Assembly (NCBI GenBank): GCA_020629835.1
Contig: JAHDCO010000004.1
Location: 1-64,000, forward strand
DNA length: 64,000 bases
Direction: 5' to 3'
From: Granulosicoccaceae bacterium
Lineage (GTDB): Bacteria; Pseudomonadota; Gammaproteobacteria; Granulosicoccales; Granulosicoccaceae
The notes under the pieces were generated by a model. The model saw only the letters and a list, made by a program, of their open reading frames with translations, was not told the DNA's origin and searched no databases. The translations under genes and the position numbers were made by a program. Below, piece after piece: positions 29,130 to 36,133 of this stretch; position 1 is the first letter of the stretch, and each line of letters opens with the position of its first letter.

Positions 29130-29484
29130 TCAATTTGAACCGGAACCCAGTTTTCGTTTCAGCCGGCTGAGGCTCTCGGGTTTAACGCTTAGGTAAGACG
29201 CCACGTGATATTGAGGAACGCGCTCGAGCAAGCTTGGAAATTGTTCGATGAGCCAGCGGTAGCGCGCTTCAAGGTCCGCGGTGTGCAACAGGCGCATGCG
29301 AGCTTCGATTTCCACAAACGCCGACTCGGCCAGAACCCGAAGAAAATTCGCAATCTGAGGATTTTTATTGCTGGCGTACAGAATCGTTTCGCGATCTATG
29401 AAAGCTAATTGCGTGGCTTCGATGGCGTCGAGAAAGAATTCGGTAGGTTAATCAGAAAATAGTGCGGCAAAATCTCCCGCAAAC
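29130..29484 (-). pseudogene. 3' part of a Crp/Fnr-family regulator, split by the IS66-type insertion
   Basis: Reading down from 29484 the frame gives FAGDFAALFSD, a TAA stop, then PTEFFLDAIEAT and the full C-terminal part with HTH: YRWLIEQFPSLLERVPQYHVASYLSVKPESLSRLKRKL. This is the end of the cyclic-nucleotide-like domain and the DNA-binding domain of a Crp/Fnr regulator. The beginning of the same gene is at 34053-34304. Joining them across one copy of the 8-bp duplication restores EGQFAGDF, so one ancestral gene was cut. The in-frame TAA is a separate inactivating change. Confidence 0.88.
29477..29484. repeat. Target-site duplication, left copy
   Basis: The octamer ccgcaaac directly before the GTAAGCGG end; the identical octamer is at 34053-34060. 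Eight bases is the duplication length known for IS66-family elements. Confidence 0.9.
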
Positions 29485-29563
29485 GTAAGCGGCTTATTAA
29501 CGGCGTCTAGCGTAATCACCGTCAATCAACCATGCTTGTCTCCAGCCACAACGGAGAACATGC

Positions 29564-29830
29564 ATGCCTCAAACCCAGATTACCGAACGCCAGCAGTATT
29601 GGCGAGACCATGTATTAGCCGCAGCACAATATGAAGGCTCGATTGTCGAATACGCAGCAGCCAATAATTTAAAAACCAAAGACCTCTATCAGTGGAAAAC
29701 AGCGCTGACCAAGCGCGGGTTTCTTCCTTTGGAAAAAACCAAACCGGCTACTGACTTCGCTGAGGTTAAACTCGACTCGGCCTCAACGGCAAAACATCAA
29801 CTGATACTTCACCTGTACAGTGTCGGCTGA
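29564..29830 (+). CDS. tnpA: IS66 accessory protein TnpA, frame interrupted near the C-terminus
   Basis: 88 residues of the small IS66 ORF1 protein, with an HTH-like start (QQYWRDHVLAAAQYEGSIVEYAAANNLKTKDLYQWK). The expected C-terminus (CRLTLPCGSTLEYFN, then IAQLLAGLRS) is encoded in the -1 frame at about 29821-29916, ending five bases from tnpB start. So either a frameshift mutation truncated it or the last part is made by ribosomal frameshifting. GGAG 5' of the ATG gives a usable ribosome site. TnpA is an accessory factor for IS66 transposition. Confidence 0.82.
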   Translation: MPQTQITERQQYWRDHVLAAAQYEGSIVEYAAANNLKTKDLYQWKTALTKRGFLPLEKTKPATDFAEVKLDSASTAKHQLILHLYSVG

Positions 29831-29918
29831 CACTGCCCTGCGGTTCGACCCTAGAATATTTTAACCCAGTTGATCCAGAATCCATCGCTCAGTTGCTTGC
29901 TGGACTTCGATCCTAAAT

Positions 29919-30278
29919 ATGCTTCGGCCCCAGAGTGATTCCGGCACGATCTACTTGTACAGAAAGCCTGTGGACATGAGGAAGGCCATCAATGGCTTGG
30001 TCGCCATCGTCGAAACGGAGATGAAGCTAGACCCGTTCAGTTCGCGTCTGTTCGTTTTTTGCAATAACAACCGCACTATCGTGAAGTGCGTGTATTGGGA
30101 AGGCAATGGTTTTGCACTGTGGATGAAGCGCATGGAGAAAAATCGATTCCAGTGGCCTCACCAGTTACACCTGGACGTGATTGACCTGAATGCACAACAA
30201 GTTAATTGGCTGTTTGACGGTTATGATTTAACGTTGATGCAAGGTCATGCATCGTTGCCACACCACACAGTTTTATAG
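29919..30278 (+). CDS. tnpB: IS66 accessory protein TnpB
   Basis: 119 residues with the IS66 ORF2 signature IYLYRKPVDMRKAINGLVAI, LFVFCNNNRTIVKCVYWEGNGFALW and KRMEKNRFQWP. Full length for the family (about 115-120). It begins shortly after the end of the complete tnpA reading and precedes tnpC by 36 bp, the standard IS66 order. It supports transposition; its molecular role is poorly defined. Confidence 0.93.
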   Translation: MLRPQSDSGTIYLYRKPVDMRKAINGLVAIVETEMKLDPFSSRLFVFCNNNRTIVKCVYWEGNGFALWMKRMEKNRFQWPHQLHLDVIDLNAQQVNWLFDGYDLTLMQGHASLPHHTVL

Positions 30279-30314
30279 TGAGTGTACGGTGTTTACGCGC
30301 TATAATAATCGCCC

Positions 30315-31832
30315 ATGAGTAGCGCAAAGACATTGCCGGTTTCTGTTGATGACTTAACGGCATTGGTCATCGAACAACAGAAAAAGCTCGACCATCAATC
30401 GTTGTTTATTGAACAACTGCTCGAACAAATTAAGCTGGCGCAGCACAACCGCTTCGGTGTCAAGAGTGAGGCGATATCGCCCGATCAACTACGACTGCTG
30501 CTCGACGAGAAGCCAGCCGCAGAGCCCATTGCTGATGATGAGGCAGACAATCCTGTTGAACCAGCCTCACAAGCCCCGATTGCCAAAGCCAAGCGTGGAC
30601 GCCGCGCACTACCGGCACACTTGCCCCGTATTGAGATTAATCACACGCTCGATGATGAGCGTTGTCAGTGCGAGCACTGCAATGAGCGAATGGTGCCGTT
30701 GAGTGAGAAAATCACCGAGCAGCTCGACATTATCCCGGCCAAAGTCCGGGTGCTTCGACATCACCGCACGACGTATCACTGCCCGGGATGCAAAGACGCA
30801 TTAAAAACAGCACCACTGCCACCACAGCCGATTCCAAAGATTAACGCGACACCGAGTCTGTTGGCCTGGTTGATTATCGCAAAGTATCTGGATGGAATGC
30901 CGCTGTACAGAATCGAAAGAAAACTTGCGCGCTACGGCATGCCATTAAACCGCTCTACTCAGGCAAGCTATATGATCCAGTGTGGTCAGTTAATACAGCC
31001 TTTAATAAACCTGATGCGAGACGGGTTATTAAGCTACGACATCATTGCGATGGACGAGTCACGCTATCAGGTATTGAAAGAAGACGGTAAAACACCGCAG
31101 AGCCAATCGTATATCTGGGTTCAACGAGGCGGGCCACCTGAGTCACCGGTGATCCTGTACGACTATGATCCAACGCGATCCCAATCCGTGCCGCTTCGAC
31201 TGCTCGATGGGTTCAGCGGTTATCTGCAAACCGATGCGTATGAAGGTTACGGTGCGGTGTGCCGAGAAAATAAACTGACGTCAGTTGGTTGTATGGCCCA
31301 CGCTCGCCGTAAGTTCGATGAAGCGTTGAAAGCCCAGCGCAGTGTGGATCCGAACAAACAAAAAAGCACACTGGCGGCCAGCGCGTTAAAACAGATCCAA
31401 GCGCTGTACAAAATCGAACGAGACATCAAGCATCTCAGTGCTAATGAGAAATACGCCATTCGACAAGAACAAGCAGTGCCGCTACTGACCGAGCTAAGAG
31501 AGTGGTTGGACACCAATATGCTTGTTGTGCCGCCACGTTCCACGCTGGGTAAAGCGATGAACTATTTGCATAAGCAATGGGATAAGCTCACCGTATACAC
31601 CACCGATGGTCGACTGCGAATAGACAATAACTTGTGCGAAAATGCAGTGAGACCCTTTGTGATGGGCAGAAAAGCCTGGTTGTTTGCAGCGTCCGTTGAT
31701 GGCGCTAAAACCAGTGCCAATTTATACAGCTTGGTGGAAACCGCCAAAGCCAATGGACATGAGCCTCACAGCTATATCCAGCATGTGTTAAGCAAACTAC
31801 CTGCCGCTCAATCGCTGGAGGATCATATTTGA
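30315..31832 (+). CDS. tnpC: IS66 transposase TnpC
   Basis: 505 residues. N-terminal coiled-coil (LDHQSLFIEQLLEQIKLAQH), zinc-finger-like cysteines (CQCEHC, YHCPGC), then a DDE core with Asp247 (IIAMDESRYQ), Asp307 (LQTDAYEGYG) and Glu442 (NNLCENAVRP), plus VGCMAHARRKFDEAL. The core appears intact. The C-terminus stops at SLEDHI, short of the usual EALLPW-like tail, and the cargo gene begins inside the stop codon, suggesting that the original 3' end of the IS was replaced by cargo DNA. Confidence 0.93.
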   Translation: MSSAKTLPVSVDDLTALVIEQQKKLDHQSLFIEQLLEQIKLAQHNRFGVKSEAISPDQLRLLLDEKPAAEPIADDEADNPVEPASQAPIAKAKRGRRALPAHLPRIEINHTLDDERCQCEHCNERMVPLSEKITEQLDIIPAKVRVLRHHRTTYHCPGCKDALKTAPLPPQPIPKINATPSLLAWLIIAKYLDGMPLYRIERKLARYGMPLNRSTQASYMIQCGQLIQPLINLMRDGLLSYDIIAMDESRYQVLKEDGKTPQSQSYIWVQRGGPPESPVILYDYDPTRSQSVPLRLLDGFSGYLQTDAYEGYGAVCRENKLTSVGCMAHARRKFDEALKAQRSVDPNKQKSTLAASALKQIQALYKIERDIKHLSANEKYAIRQEQAVPLLTELREWLDTNMLVVPPRSTLGKAMNYLHKQWDKLTVYTTDGRLRIDNNLCENAVRPFVMGRKAWLFAASVDGAKTSANLYSLVETAKANGHEPHSYIQHVLSKLPAAQSLEDHI

Positions 31833-33154
31833 AATTAGCAAGATCTACTTTATTTCAGTTCAATGCTATTGGCGTGGATAGACTATTAGAGGTTGATTCA
31901 GACTTACAGATTATATTAGTCAACCTAAGTGCCAAGGAAATAAATGACGTTATCGAAAATACACAGAACGTCATCGACCGGATAGAGCAGTACGAAAAAC
32001 CAGAAGATTCAATTACACCGGCTATGCAATGGTCTGAAATCTGGAGTCACGCAAGATTCGGGCAACACCAAGGAAACGGCATCGCTATTTGGCAAACCGA
32101 AAACGGATGTCCTCCAAATACATTCATGGCAAACTACAACAGGGTTGCAGGTGCCAATACCCAACATTCCAGAGACATGGCGACAATCATACGCTCGGTC
32201 TCTCCATTAGCAAATATTCAATGCCGAGGAGGCCCGATTTTTCCAACAAATGCGCAAGCTAATACTCCCAACCCGCAAGTGCAAATAGTCAGTAGATCTA
32301 ATAACAATGGGATTAACCCTAATGCATATAATAACCAAGATCAAACATGGGACGATAGGATTTATAACTCCCTACTAACAGCTACTCAATCATCTGGAAA
32401 TACACAAAACGCAGTCATCAGCCCCGGTAAAGCGCTTAATGCTATTACCGTTGGAAATGTTGATATAGATGCAAATCCTGATGTCATCTGGTTTACGTCT
32501 GGCTGGCAAGACAGCGTGCTTGGAACCGAAAAACCAGATGTCGGAGCTCCGGGTGAGGGCACAGCGTTACCCGCTCCAAACGGACCGACCGGTGGTACTA
32601 GTGCCGCGACCGCTCATACAGCCGGATTTATTGCGAATTTGATGGACTTCGACGCCAGTTTGATTCGCAATCCTCAGCGCACAAAAGCTCTTTTACTTTC
32701 TGGTGCCACCACCTCTGTAATCGGTGGGACAAGTAAAGTTGGGGCTGGGGGTATCGACTACAGAAACACATCTCAGCACTATCAGACTTATGATTTTGAT
32801 GGGCCAAATATTAATTGGAACGCATTTGACGCCGCTGATGGCAATTTAGATGGCTGGATAACAGTTACCAAATGGCTGCAGAATAATAAGCCTAACGTAC
32901 GAGCTGCGATAGCGTGGATGAGTAGAGGCGTTTTTGTTAATACAAATGCCGTGCCTTCTACTGACTACGACATTGAGGTATATGATCCAAATGGGAACTA
33001 CGTCGGCGGTAGTCACAGCAGAGTTAATACCTTTGAACTAGTCGATGTTACGGTGAGTATCTCTGGCAATTATCAATTTAAGATAAATAGATTTGCGAAT
33101 CCAGATCCCGCTTCTCGCGTCGCTCTCGCATTATCTGTAAATTTCGATAATTAA
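31829..33154 (+). CDS. Cargo gene: diverged subtilase-like (S8 family) protein
   Basis: 441 residues. The subtilase core is visible: GNGIAIWQTENG (Asp motif, with Glu91 at the expected Asp position), QHSRDMATII (His113), KPDVGAPGEG, and GGTSAATAHTAGF (Ser258). The C-terminal ~120 residues look like a beta-rich domain (YDIEVYDPNGNYVGGSHSRV, VTVSISGNYQFKI). No signal peptide is seen. It starts with TTG in TTGA, overlapping the tnpC stop by four bases, so translation may be coupled to the transposase. AT-richer than the neighbourhood. Whether Glu91 supports catalysis, or the protein is a binding relic, is open. Confidence 0.75.
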   Translation: MKLARSTLFQFNAIGVDRLLEVDSDLQIILVNLSAKEINDVIENTQNVIDRIEQYEKPEDSITPAMQWSEIWSHARFGQHQGNGIAIWQTENGCPPNTFMANYNRVAGANTQHSRDMATIIRSVSPLANIQCRGGPIFPTNAQANTPNPQVQIVSRSNNNGINPNAYNNQDQTWDDRIYNSLLTATQSSGNTQNAVISPGKALNAITVGNVDIDANPDVIWFTSGWQDSVLGTEKPDVGAPGEGTALPAPNGPTGGTSAATAHTAGFIANLMDFDASLIRNPQRTKALLLSGATTSVIGGTSKVGAGGIDYRNTSQHYQTYDFDGPNINWNAFDAADGNLDGWITVTKWLQNNKPNVRAAIAWMSRGVFVNTNAVPSTDYDIEVYDPNGNYVGGSHSRVNTFELVDVTVSISGNYQFKINRFANPDPASRVALALSVNFDN

Positions 33155-33158
33155 TCAC

Positions 33159-33707
33159 ATGTCCATATACACAATAGTCTTCAAAGCACTGTTAGTGTTT
33201 GGTCTTCTACTGCAATATGGCTGCAATAACACAGAGCCAAATAATCAGACATCACCGCAGGCTCAGGATGACTCAGCGGTGAAGTCTGATAAACGCTGGT
33301 CCCTAGCATCATATTCTATCGAAGGTGATGAACATACATCTGCTCTTCGTAATATTAACGTCACGATTGCATTTACAAGCTCAGATCAAGGGACAATAAC
33401 CGGATTTACTGGATTTGATGGCTGTAACGTATTTGTATCAGATCAGGTAATGTTGGTTGGAGAAAATGTGTTGCAAGTTAATGGAGTAAATGTAGATGCA
33501 GGATTCTGCGCTGAATTGCAAACCACTGACTACCTGCAACAAAATGACTTCTTTTACTCTGTTATCACATCATCATTTACTTATGTGAATTCTGATGAGC
33601 AGATAATTTTACAAACGCCAACAAAACGAACTTTACGATTCGAACCGTGTATTCCTATTGATCCCGATTCACTTGATTCTGGATGCGGTTCTATCCCACA
33701 AGGTTAG
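33159..33707 (+). CDS. Cargo gene: META/HslJ-like lipoprotein
   Basis: 182 residues. Lipoprotein signal: hydrophobic helix ending LLLQYGC with Cys22 as the probable lipidated residue. After a low-complexity linker, the META-like pattern follows: RWSLASYSIEG, VTIAFTSSDQGTITGF, GCN at 88-90 and a later Cys117, ending TLRFEPC. META-domain lipoproteins are periplasmic or outer-membrane linked; their molecular function is not well known. Four bases after the subtilase-like gene, so the two form one operon inside the mobile element. The call is from pattern only. Confidence 0.65.
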   Translation: MSIYTIVFKALLVFGLLLQYGCNNTEPNNQTSPQAQDDSAVKSDKRWSLASYSIEGDEHTSALRNINVTIAFTSSDQGTITGFTGFDGCNVFVSDQVMLVGENVLQVNGVNVDAGFCAELQTTDYLQQNDFFYSVITSSFTYVNSDEQIILQTPTKRTLRFEPCIPIDPDSLDSGCGSIPQG

Positions 33708-33811
33708 TTCTGGAAAAATGAGTATTGCTTGAGGCCTCAGATGTATTGTGTTTAACCATGAGAAAAATATAGTACTTAATGTACTGAAAATGATCAGCGA
33801 TCGTATCCCGA

Positions 33812-34052
33812 GTAAGCGTTTTAGGTGGCCTGATATTCCGCCGGCCGCAAGTAAAAAGGCAATAGTGCTTCGATGTCTTTTAGTGTCTGCGCTGCGGAAA
33901 ATTCTGCCAATACCCGTTTGCTGTAGACATAGGGTTCATGTCCGTTAGCTTTAGTCGTTACTACTAGGCAGTGTTAGTTTGCGCTTGCATCGGCTCCAAC
34001 CACCTAATAGGCAAGGAGCTACGATTTTTTACCCATAACAAAAGGCTCTTAC
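33812..34052 (-). mobile_element. Internally deleted IS66 remnant, inverted relative to the tnpABC copy
   Basis: On the minus strand the 241 bp run from GTAAGAGCCTTTTG to a CGCTTAC end at 33812. Between them the frame ending at 33821-33823 reads KANGHEPYVYSKRVLAEF, then TLKDIEALLPFYLRPA, which is the C-terminus of an IS66 TnpC (compare KANGHEPHSYIQHVLSKL in the intact copy). Everything between the left end and this tail is gone. No 8-bp duplication flanks this piece by itself, so it did not insert alone here; its outer end serves the composite. Confidence 0.82.
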
Positions 34053-34060
34053 CCGCAAAC
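34053..34060. repeat. Target-site duplication, right copy
   Basis: ccgcaaac, identical to 29477-29484 and abutting the right end of the element. Confidence 0.9.
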
Positions 34061-34304
34061 TGACCTTCAATAAAAAATAATCGGTTTTATCCTCACCATT
34101 GATAATTTCATAAGACCGCACGATTCCAGACTCAACAAATAAAATCGCGTTTTGCGTATCGCCAGGCTTTGCGATGATTTCGCCGGGTTCATACCCGCGC
34201 ACAACAGATGCTTTCGCTATCTGCTCACAGGCCAACTCGCTGAGTCCAGTTGCTAATAGATAACTTCGTAGGTCTGATGCCATACCGGGCTGGATCGTCT
34301 TCAA
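34053..34304 (-). pseudogene. 5' part of the interrupted Crp/Fnr-family regulator
   Basis: Starts at TTG 34304 or ATG 34283 and reads a cyclic-nucleotide-binding-like fold: ASVVRGYEPGEIIAKPGDTQ, ILFVESGIVRSYEIINGEDKTDYF. After DYF a run of six T appears to have lost one base; restoring it gives FIEGQFAG, which continues in the fragment at 29130-29484. So the gene carries a frameshift, a nonsense codon and the transposon insertion. The intact protein would have been an activator or repressor of about 200 residues. Confidence 0.85.
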
Positions 34305-34660: not shown

Positions 34661-36133
34661 ATGAAAATCAAAATGATACTGCCAGCGTTACTTGAAGCAG
34701 AAAGTCCAGCTTGGCGTCCCGTTAAGTATTCGTTATTCCCGCCCTTAGGTCTAGCCACCCTGGCAGCCCATTGTGCACCCGATGATGAAGTGACCATCGT
34801 GGATCAGCATGTGGAGCCGTTGTCTTTAGATGATGAGCCGGATTTGGTAGTCATTCAGGTTTACATTACAAATGCCTACCGGGCCTACGCTATTGCTGAC
34901 GAGTATCGCGCACGCGGTATCTATGTTGTCCTCGGCGGGCTTCATGTCACATCAATACCCGCAGAGGCTTCCGTTCACGCAGACACAATCTTTCTTGGTC
35001 CTGGAGATTGCTCATTTCCTAAATTCTTAGCGGACTTTAGACGTTTAAAGCCTAAACCGCAGTATCAGGCCGACGCTAGGAGCCTTGTCGGTATTCCTCC
35101 GATACGCAGAGATTTGATTAAGCGGAAACTCTATCTCGTACCCAATTCGATTGTGGTTACACGTGGTTGTCCATTTCATTGTTCATTTTGTTACAAGGAT
35201 GCATTCTTTAAAGGTGGAAAGTCGTTTTACACACAGCAAGTTGACGAAGCGTTAAGAGAAATAGATCGCTTACCGGGTAAGCATTTGTATTTTTTAGATG
35301 ATCATCTACTCGGGCATCGCAAGTTTGCAGCAGAACTCTTCGCGGGCATGCAAGGTATGAATCGTTTGTTTCAAGGTGCGGCTACCGTTGATTCCATACT
35401 GCGTGGAAACTTAATTGAACAAGCTGCCAACGCTGGATTGCGAAGCCTTTTTGTGGGGTTCGAATCGATAAATTCTCAGAACCACTTAGCCACCGGAAAA
35501 ACACAAAACGTAAATCGAGACTACGAGAAAGTTGTTAAACGTCTCGATGATTTGGGCATTATGATTAACGGCAGTTTCGTATTTGGGCTTGATCATGATA
35601 AGCCAGACGTTTTTGATAAAACAGTTGACTGGGCGGTTGAACAAGGAATAACTACAGCAACCTTTCATATTGCAACACCGTACCCGGGTACGGACTATTA
35701 TGCGCAATTGCGTAAAACAAACAGAATTGTGACTAGTAACTGGGATAAATACGATACGCGACATGTCGTGTTTAAACCCAAACATATGGATAAATCAGTG
35801 CTGGAAAATGGCTACCACCGAGCATACAAGAACTTTTACAGCTGGCGGAACATTGGACGTGCCAGTTTGCAGCATCGATCGGTAAAACACCGAGTGAAAC
35901 ACTTTGCGTACACAACCGGCTGGCGTAAGTTTGAGCCGCTTTGGGATGTCGTCATTCGTGCGAAACAACTTAAGTTAATGACACCCATGTTGGAAGGTGT
36001 TTTATCTAAGGTAACAACACCAAAATCTGCCGTGAGCGACAGCAGTTCAGCATCGTGCTCTGAATCGATTGTTCATTTCAAAGAACGCAATCTCCCTACC
36101 CCAGTCAGCTCATTTAAGCCACCCGAATATTAA
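34661..36133 (+). CDS. B12-binding-domain radical SAM protein
   Basis: 490 residues. N-terminal cobalamin-binding-like Rossmann region (FPPLGLATLAAHC, VTIVDQHVEPL, VVLGGLHVTSIP), then the radical SAM site Cys170-x3-Cys174-x2-Cys177 in RGCPFHCSFCYKD, followed by the barrel (KHLYFLDDHLLGH, SLFVGFESI, INGSFVFGLDHD, FHIATPYPGT). The order matches class B/BchE-HpnJ-like enzymes, which methylate or rearrange unactivated carbons. The usual B12-contact DxHxxG motif is not obvious; the nearest phrase is VDQHVEP. It stands alone, so the substrate cannot be inferred. The C-terminal ~60 residues are Ser-rich and probably disordered. Confidence 0.88.
   Translation: MKIKMILPALLEAESPAWRPVKYSLFPPLGLATLAAHCAPDDEVTIVDQHVEPLSLDDEPDLVVIQVYITNAYRAYAIADEYRARGIYVVLGGLHVTSIPAEASVHADTIFLGPGDCSFPKFLADFRRLKPKPQYQADARSLVGIPPIRRDLIKRKLYLVPNSIVVTRGCPFHCSFCYKDAFFKGGKSFYTQQVDEALREIDRLPGKHLYFLDDHLLGHRKFAAELFAGMQGMNRLFQGAATVDSILRGNLIEQAANAGLRSLFVGFESINSQNHLATGKTQNVNRDYEKVVKRLDDLGIMINGSFVFGLDHDKPDVFDKTVDWAVEQGITTATFHIATPYPGTDYYAQLRKTNRIVTSNWDKYDTRHVVFKPKHMDKSVLENGYHRAYKNFYSWRNIGRASLQHRSVKHRVKHFAYTTGWRKFEPLWDVVIRAKQLKLMTPMLEGVLSKVTTPKSAVSDSSSASCSESIVHFKERNLPTPVSSFKPPEY

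What the first reader, a model, noticed from the sequence alone, without database searches (positions are those of the whole stretch)
29477..34060. IS66-type composite carrying a protease and a lipoprotein, bounded by an 8-bp duplication
ccgcaaac flanks a 4568-bp unit with GTAAG ends. The host gene frame joins perfectly across it, which proves the borders. IS66 elements usually carry only tnpABC; this one carries two linked, AT-richer cargo genes between an intact tnpC and an inverted IS66 relic. It may be a new cargo-bearing element class.
Basis: seen in the sequence. Interest (0 to 1): 0.8.

Follow-up and report, generated by a model that had tools for sequence, protein, structure and literature searches.

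The report
IS66 element carrying neighbouring gene fragments
A jumping gene of the common IS66 family landed in a regulator gene together with a stretch of neighbouring DNA (a beheaded protease gene and a lipoprotein gene), apparently because its right end is a look-alike sequence inside the wreck of another IS66 element; cargo-carrying IS66 elements are already known, so this looks like an accident rather than a new class.

Summary
Borders confirmed: 29485-34052 (4568 bp), GTAAG at both ends, flanked by an exact 8-bp repeat ccgcaaac, inside a Crp/Fnr-like gene whose frame resumes at the join. The rest needs correction. (1) The right "end" is not a normal IS66 terminus: it lies on the V-R-P-F codons of an inverted, decayed tnpC fragment, whose true IRR sits inward at 33812. 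(2) tnpC is not fully intact: it lacks its last ~16 codons and the adjoining IRR present in three relatives; tnpA is frameshifted. (3) The S8 protease is 5'-truncated at the tnpC junction (~175 residues, signal peptide included, missing against its best homologue). (4) The cargo is not an IS66-linked pair: single copy here, protease in no other examined relative, META-like lipoprotein in two relatives without IS66 nearby. (5) The host gene also has a frameshift and a stop, so it does not join "perfectly". Best reading: single-IS mobilisation of adjacent DNA (transposable module / tIS66) using a cryptic end in a neighbouring IS66 wreck. Main rival: a composite transposon later shortened by a deletion at a 5-bp microhomology. 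Passenger-carrying IS66 elements are already described (PMC12888890). New member of a known kind, low to moderate interest.

The parts
29477..29484 (.). target-site duplication, left copy (ccgcaaac)
   Evidence: exact copy at 34053-34060
29485..29508 (+). left terminal inverted repeat (IRL), GTAAGCGGCTTATTAACGGCGTCT
   Evidence: near-identical to the IRL of L011 and L024 (GTAACCGGCTTATTAACGGCGTCT)
29564..29830 (+). tnpA, shortened by a frameshift to 88 codons (relatives 117-121); the missing C-terminal part is still readable in another frame to about 29917
   Evidence: (NF047593 TnpA), alignment
29919..30278 (+). tnpB, intact
   Evidence: PF05717 E=1.7e-36
30315..31832 (+). tnpC (DDE transposase), last ~16 codons replaced at the cargo junction
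   Evidence: PF03050 E=6.5e-95; comparison with L011-L013
31819..31832 (+). approximate junction between tnpC and the truncated protease gene; native C-terminus and IRR of this IS66 missing
31829..33154 (+). S8 (subtilase) peptidase gene, 5'-truncated (about 175 N-terminal residues including signal peptide missing relative to WP_160182256.1)
   Evidence: PF00082 E=7.5e-11
33159..33707 (+). lipoprotein gene related to META-domain lipoproteins
   Evidence: lipobox-like LLLQYGC in sequence; homologues L041 (45-46%) and L042 (36%) match PF03724 META
33812..33835 (-). true right end (IRR) of the inverted IS66 relic, facing inward
   Evidence: GTAAGCG directly after the stop codon of the relic tnpC tail, as in L011-L013
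33812..34052 (-). inverted relic of a different IS66: C-terminal tail of tnpC from the VRPF codons to its IRR; in-frame stops and one frameshift
   Evidence: (54% aa identity)
34038..34052 (-). right terminus of the inserted unit, GTAAGAGCCTTTTGT: a cryptic end lying on the V-R-P-F codons of the relic
   Evidence: scores 10.7 bits against an IR matrix, 22 sites as good in 128 kb scanned
34053..34060 (.). target-site duplication, right copy
29130..29484 (-). C-terminal part of the interrupted Crp/Fnr-like gene (contains a TAA stop)
34061..34304 (-). N-terminal part of the interrupted Crp/Fnr-like gene (1-nt frameshift near 34080)

Best explanation
An IS66 copy that had lost its own right end (IRR and the last tnpC codons, apparently together with the 5' part of a protease gene) lay next to a lipoprotein gene and a decayed, inverted piece of another IS66. 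Its transposase paired the intact left end with a GTAAGAG sequence that happens to occur on the conserved VRPF codons of the neighbouring tnpC wreck, and moved everything in between into a Crp/Fnr-like gene, duplicating 8 bp. It therefore works like a transposable module (single-IS mobilisation of adjacent DNA by misrecognition of an end), or seen statically like a tIS66. The cargo is a passenger with no sign of being maintained: the protease lacks its export signal, and tnpA is now frameshifted, so the unit is probably immobile. Shown: borders, TSD, truncation of tnpC and protease, identity of the right terminus with tnpC codons. Inferred: order of events and use of the cryptic end by the transposase.
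For: Exact 8-bp duplication outside GTAAG on both sides and homologue-supported continuity of the host gene at the join; genus copies obey the same 8-bp/GTAAGCG rule. The relic aligns with tnpC of L011-L013 from the first base of the right end, GTA AGA (G)CC TTT = V R P F, so no piece of a native IRR is needed to explain it. That site scores 10.7 bits against the IR matrix, reached by only 22 of ~128,000 positions in the window. The relic is a different IS66 from the main one (56.8% nt identity, against 78.4% between the main copy and L011) and its own IRR points inward. tnpC tail and IRR are missing in the main copy; the protease is truncated at the same junction. Literature precedent for single-IS modules by end misrecognition: PMC9330008.
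Against: Only one copy exists, so the use of the cryptic end is inferred from a single insertion. The match to the IR beyond GTAAG is weak (5 of the next 10 bases), and in intact tnpC genes the VRPF site is not a strong IR look-alike (rank 12-765 of about 3,000 positions), so the mimicry is not a general property. No donor site was found.
Confidence: 0.55

Rival explanations
1. It arrived as an ordinary composite transposon with two inverted IS66 copies (GTAAG outer ends), and the right copy was later shortened by a deletion between the 5-bp repeat GTAAG in its outer end and GTAAG(A) in its tnpC, leaving the TSD and a GTAAG end in place.
For: GTAAG is shared by IS66 ends and by the relic's V-R codons; truncated and internally deleted IS66 copies are common in the genus and family (L024, L066, L071).
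Against: Needs an extra event with one breakpoint within 5 bp of the IS end. The two IS66 arms are quite different elements (56.8% nt identity), unlike typical composites. The relic carries several stops and a frameshift while tnpB and tnpC are open, so the relic was probably old before the move, although only its outer end, not its tnpC, would have had to work.
Confidence: 0.25
2. A true tIS66 class in which protease plus lipoprotein is a maintained cargo module with a function for element or host.
For: Two open reading frames directly downstream of tnpC, protease start overlapping the tnpC stop; tIS66 elements carry passengers at this position (PMC12888890). The best protease homologue, on a Paraglaciecola plasmid, is also followed by a lipoprotein gene and has a deleted IS66 about 300 bp further downstream.
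Against: Protease lacks ~175 N-terminal residues and a signal peptide. The protease was found in no other genome of the genus or family examined apart from generic subtilase matches, and lipoprotein homologues have no IS66 within the fetched flanks. The Paraglaciecola lipoprotein is an unrelated PKD-type protein and that IS66 does not enclose the pair.
Confidence: 0.06
3. The unit was built in place: an IS66 inserted into the Crp/Fnr gene and later rearrangements put cargo and relic between tnpC and the original IRR.
For: An IS66 insertion alone would give the TSD; later insertion of other DNA is possible in principle.
Against: The relic reaches the last base of the unit, so the original IRR would have to be replaced exactly up to its GTAAG.
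Confidence: 0.08

Closest known systems
tIS66 elements (for example ISPa75 carrying fosZ; PMC12888890)
   Same: tnpA-tnpB-tnpC followed by a passenger downstream of the DDE transposase, GTAAG/GTAAC ends; ISPa75 too has left and right ends related to different IS66 elements.
   Different: Here the right terminus is not a genuine IRR but a stretch of a tnpC relic, the passenger protease is truncated, and only one copy is known.
Transposable modules (TMos) of ISPme1 and ISEcp1 (IS1380 family; PMC9330008, PMC3281130)
   Same: One IS copy plus adjacent genomic DNA ending at a misrecognised, weakly matching end, inserted as one unit.
   Different: IS66 transposase instead of IS1380; PMC9330008 names IS1380 members and possibly one IS3 member; the surrogate end lies inside another IS of the same family.
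IS composite transposon
   Same: Cargo lies between two IS66-derived sequences in inverted orientation.
   Different: The right arm is a 241-bp wreck of a different IS66 with only its inward-facing end preserved.

Membership tests
IS66 family element | tnpA, tnpB and DDE tnpC with IS66 signatures | tested here: met
   but tnpA frameshifted and tnpC tail missing
IS66 family element | 8-bp target duplication | tested here: met
   genus copies the same; IS66 entries of PMC3281130 list 8 bp
IS66 family element | genuine inverted repeats at both ends | tested here: not met
   left end met; right end is tnpC coding sequence with a GTAAG start
tIS66 (IS66 with passenger genes) | passenger gene(s) between tnpC and IRR | tested here: inconclusive
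   genes are there, but the native IRR is missing and the protease is truncated
tIS66 (IS66 with passenger genes) | same element with the same cargo at several sites | tested here: not met
   one copy only in own genome and 57 relatives
Transposable module (TMo) | single IS with one native end, adjacent DNA, surrogate distal end, TSD around the whole | tested here: met
Transposable module (TMo) | variable endpoints or donor site showing mobilisation from a genomic location | tested here: inconclusive
   no second copy and no donor site found in the own genome or relatives; the donor genome may simply not be sampled
Composite transposon | two IS copies of the same kind, outer ends intact | tested here: not met
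   right arm is a 241-bp wreck of a different IS66

The most novel reading that the evidence does not exclude
IS66 transposases can generate transposable modules by accepting a GTAAG-type cryptic end, here one lying on the catalytic-E (VRPF) codons of a neighbouring tnpC wreck, so that IS66 graveyards act as surrogate ends that mobilise the DNA between them.
Probability: 0.4. Interest if true: 0.4.

Novelty: new member of a known kind. Interest (0 to 1): 0.27.

Why it matters
If the cryptic-end reading is right, it extends single-IS gene mobilisation, described for IS1380 elements such as ISEcp1, to the IS66 family and shows how tIS66 elements with unlike ends can arise: the right end comes from another IS66 next door. 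It is also a caution that an 8-bp TSD and two GTAAG ends do not by themselves show a mature element class.

Tried and rejected
Conserved cargo class: searched protease and lipoprotein in own genome, relatives and a class-wide sample of 369 genomes, all species genomes by peptide pattern (one spurious 50-residue hit), plasmids, phages and viral contigs; nothing linked to IS66 except the Paraglaciecola plasmid, where a deleted IS66 lies downstream of an S8 protease but does not enclose it. Empty-site allele: no Crp/Fnr orthologue in relatives or the class sample. General mimicry of IS66 ends by tnpC VRPF codons: tested on nine other tnpC genes plus the window's own, not general. Short left-end-only matches in relatives turned out to be truncated or miniature IS66 derivatives without cargo. 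The promoter scan gave fewer sites than shuffles and was not used.

Full report
Borders. The unit 29485-34052 (4568 bp) starts GTAAGCGGCTTATTAACGG and, read from the other side, GTAAGAGCCTTTTGTTATGGG; ccgcaaac stands directly outside both. Chance identity of two given 8-mers is about 1.5e-5. In the same genus, IS66 copies with intact ends are flanked by exact 8-bp repeats (CCTTTGGT in L026, ATTACATT in L029; read), so the rule fits. The flanking gene on the minus strand is a Crp/Fnr-type regulator; removing the unit and one repeat gives ...EGQFAGDFAALF..., which aligns without gap to L035 and L036 across the join, and the cNMP-binding match rises above the Pfam cut-off only after joining. But the gene also carries a 1-nt frameshift in a T run near 34080 and a TAA near 29448, so it is decayed independently of the insertion, or these are sequence errors.

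The IS66. tnpB and the tnpC DDE domain are complete. Close relatives exist in the genus and family: 91% (L011), 75% (L012), 71% (L013) TnpC identity, and a 94% identical but truncated copy (L024). In L011, L012 and L013 tnpC continues past ...LED for about 16 more codons and the IRR (CGCTTAC) follows within about 30 bp; in the window tnpC breaks off after ...QSLED and runs into HI-stop, and neither the last ~16 codons nor the IRR exist. tnpA is cut to 88 codons by a frameshift; its C-terminal CRLTLPCGS..EYF is readable in another frame.

The cargo. The first cargo gene starts with TTG over the tnpC stop. It matches Peptidase_S8. Its only extended homologue found, on a Paraglaciecola mesophila plasmid (WP_160182256.1, 628 aa), is 25% identical and has about 175 additional N-terminal residues including a signal-peptide-like start; the window protein begins to align near residue 176-204 of it. 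The simplest reading is a gene beheaded at the tnpC junction, by the same event that removed the IRR. The second gene has a lipobox-like segment; its homologues L041 (45-46%) and L042 (36%) match META, and no IS66 tnpB/tnpC is found in their fetched flanks. Neither gene was found again in the own genome, and neither gave a match in the class-wide samples beyond generic subtilase hits.

The right end. A tnpC relic on the minus strand covers 33812-34052 (54% aa identity over residues 445-503). Its own IRR, GTAAGCG directly after its stop codon, is at 33812 and faces inward. Outward, the relic aligns with tnpC of L011-L013 from the very first base of the unit: GTA AGA (G)CC TTT corresponds to V R P F. 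So the right terminus of the unit is tnpC coding sequence, not an IS66 end. It nevertheless resembles the ends: 10.7 bits against a matrix of known ends, a value reached by 22 of about 128,000 positions in the window. In nine other tnpC genes and the window's own, the same codons do not score highly, so this relic's version was a chance look-alike. The relic belongs to a different IS66 lineage from the main copy (56.8% nt identity, against 63.8-68.8% to L011-L013).

Mechanism. The most economical account is that a one-ended IS66 used its IRL and this look-alike as ends and carried the DNA in between into the regulator gene. This is how transposable modules of ISPme1 and ISEcp1 are explained (PMC9330008: terminal structure misrecognition). 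A composite transposon shortened afterwards through the 5-bp repeat GTAAG is the main rival and cannot be excluded with one copy. Both make the cargo incidental.

Known context. Passenger-carrying IS66 elements (tIS66) are documented: 7 of 25 Pseudomonas entries in ISfinder according to PMC12888890, with ISPa75-fosZ described in detail and having unlike left and right ends. Thus cargo on IS66 is not new. What is unusual is the right terminus. I file it as a new member of a known kind, with a possible small extension (IS66-made transposable module).

Noticed in passing
L066 2300-2409; L071 3003-3180; L067 3528-3581; L069 4308-4411: Short sequences in sister species that share only the left 54-104 bp of this IS66, some with a GCTTAC right end within about 110-180 bp: probable IS66-derived miniature elements (MITE-like) in this genus.
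   Followed up: partly
L039 6260-7000 (NZ_CP047657.1, Paraglaciecola mesophila plasmid): A deleted IS66 (tnpA start fused to the tnpC C-terminal half, ending in CGCTTAC) lies about 300 bp downstream of an S8 protease plus lipoprotein pair; coincidence or a recurring neighbourhood.
   Followed up: partly
L024 1-3214 (G027:C36): A 94% identical IS66 copy truncated after about residue 291 of TnpC, with no right end: one-ended IS66 copies recur in this family.
   Followed up: no
window 34661-36133: Intact gene with a CxxxxC-C type cysteine motif and B12-binding-like N-terminus (radical SAM type) directly beyond the interrupted regulator gene; seen in the ORF list only.
   Followed up: no
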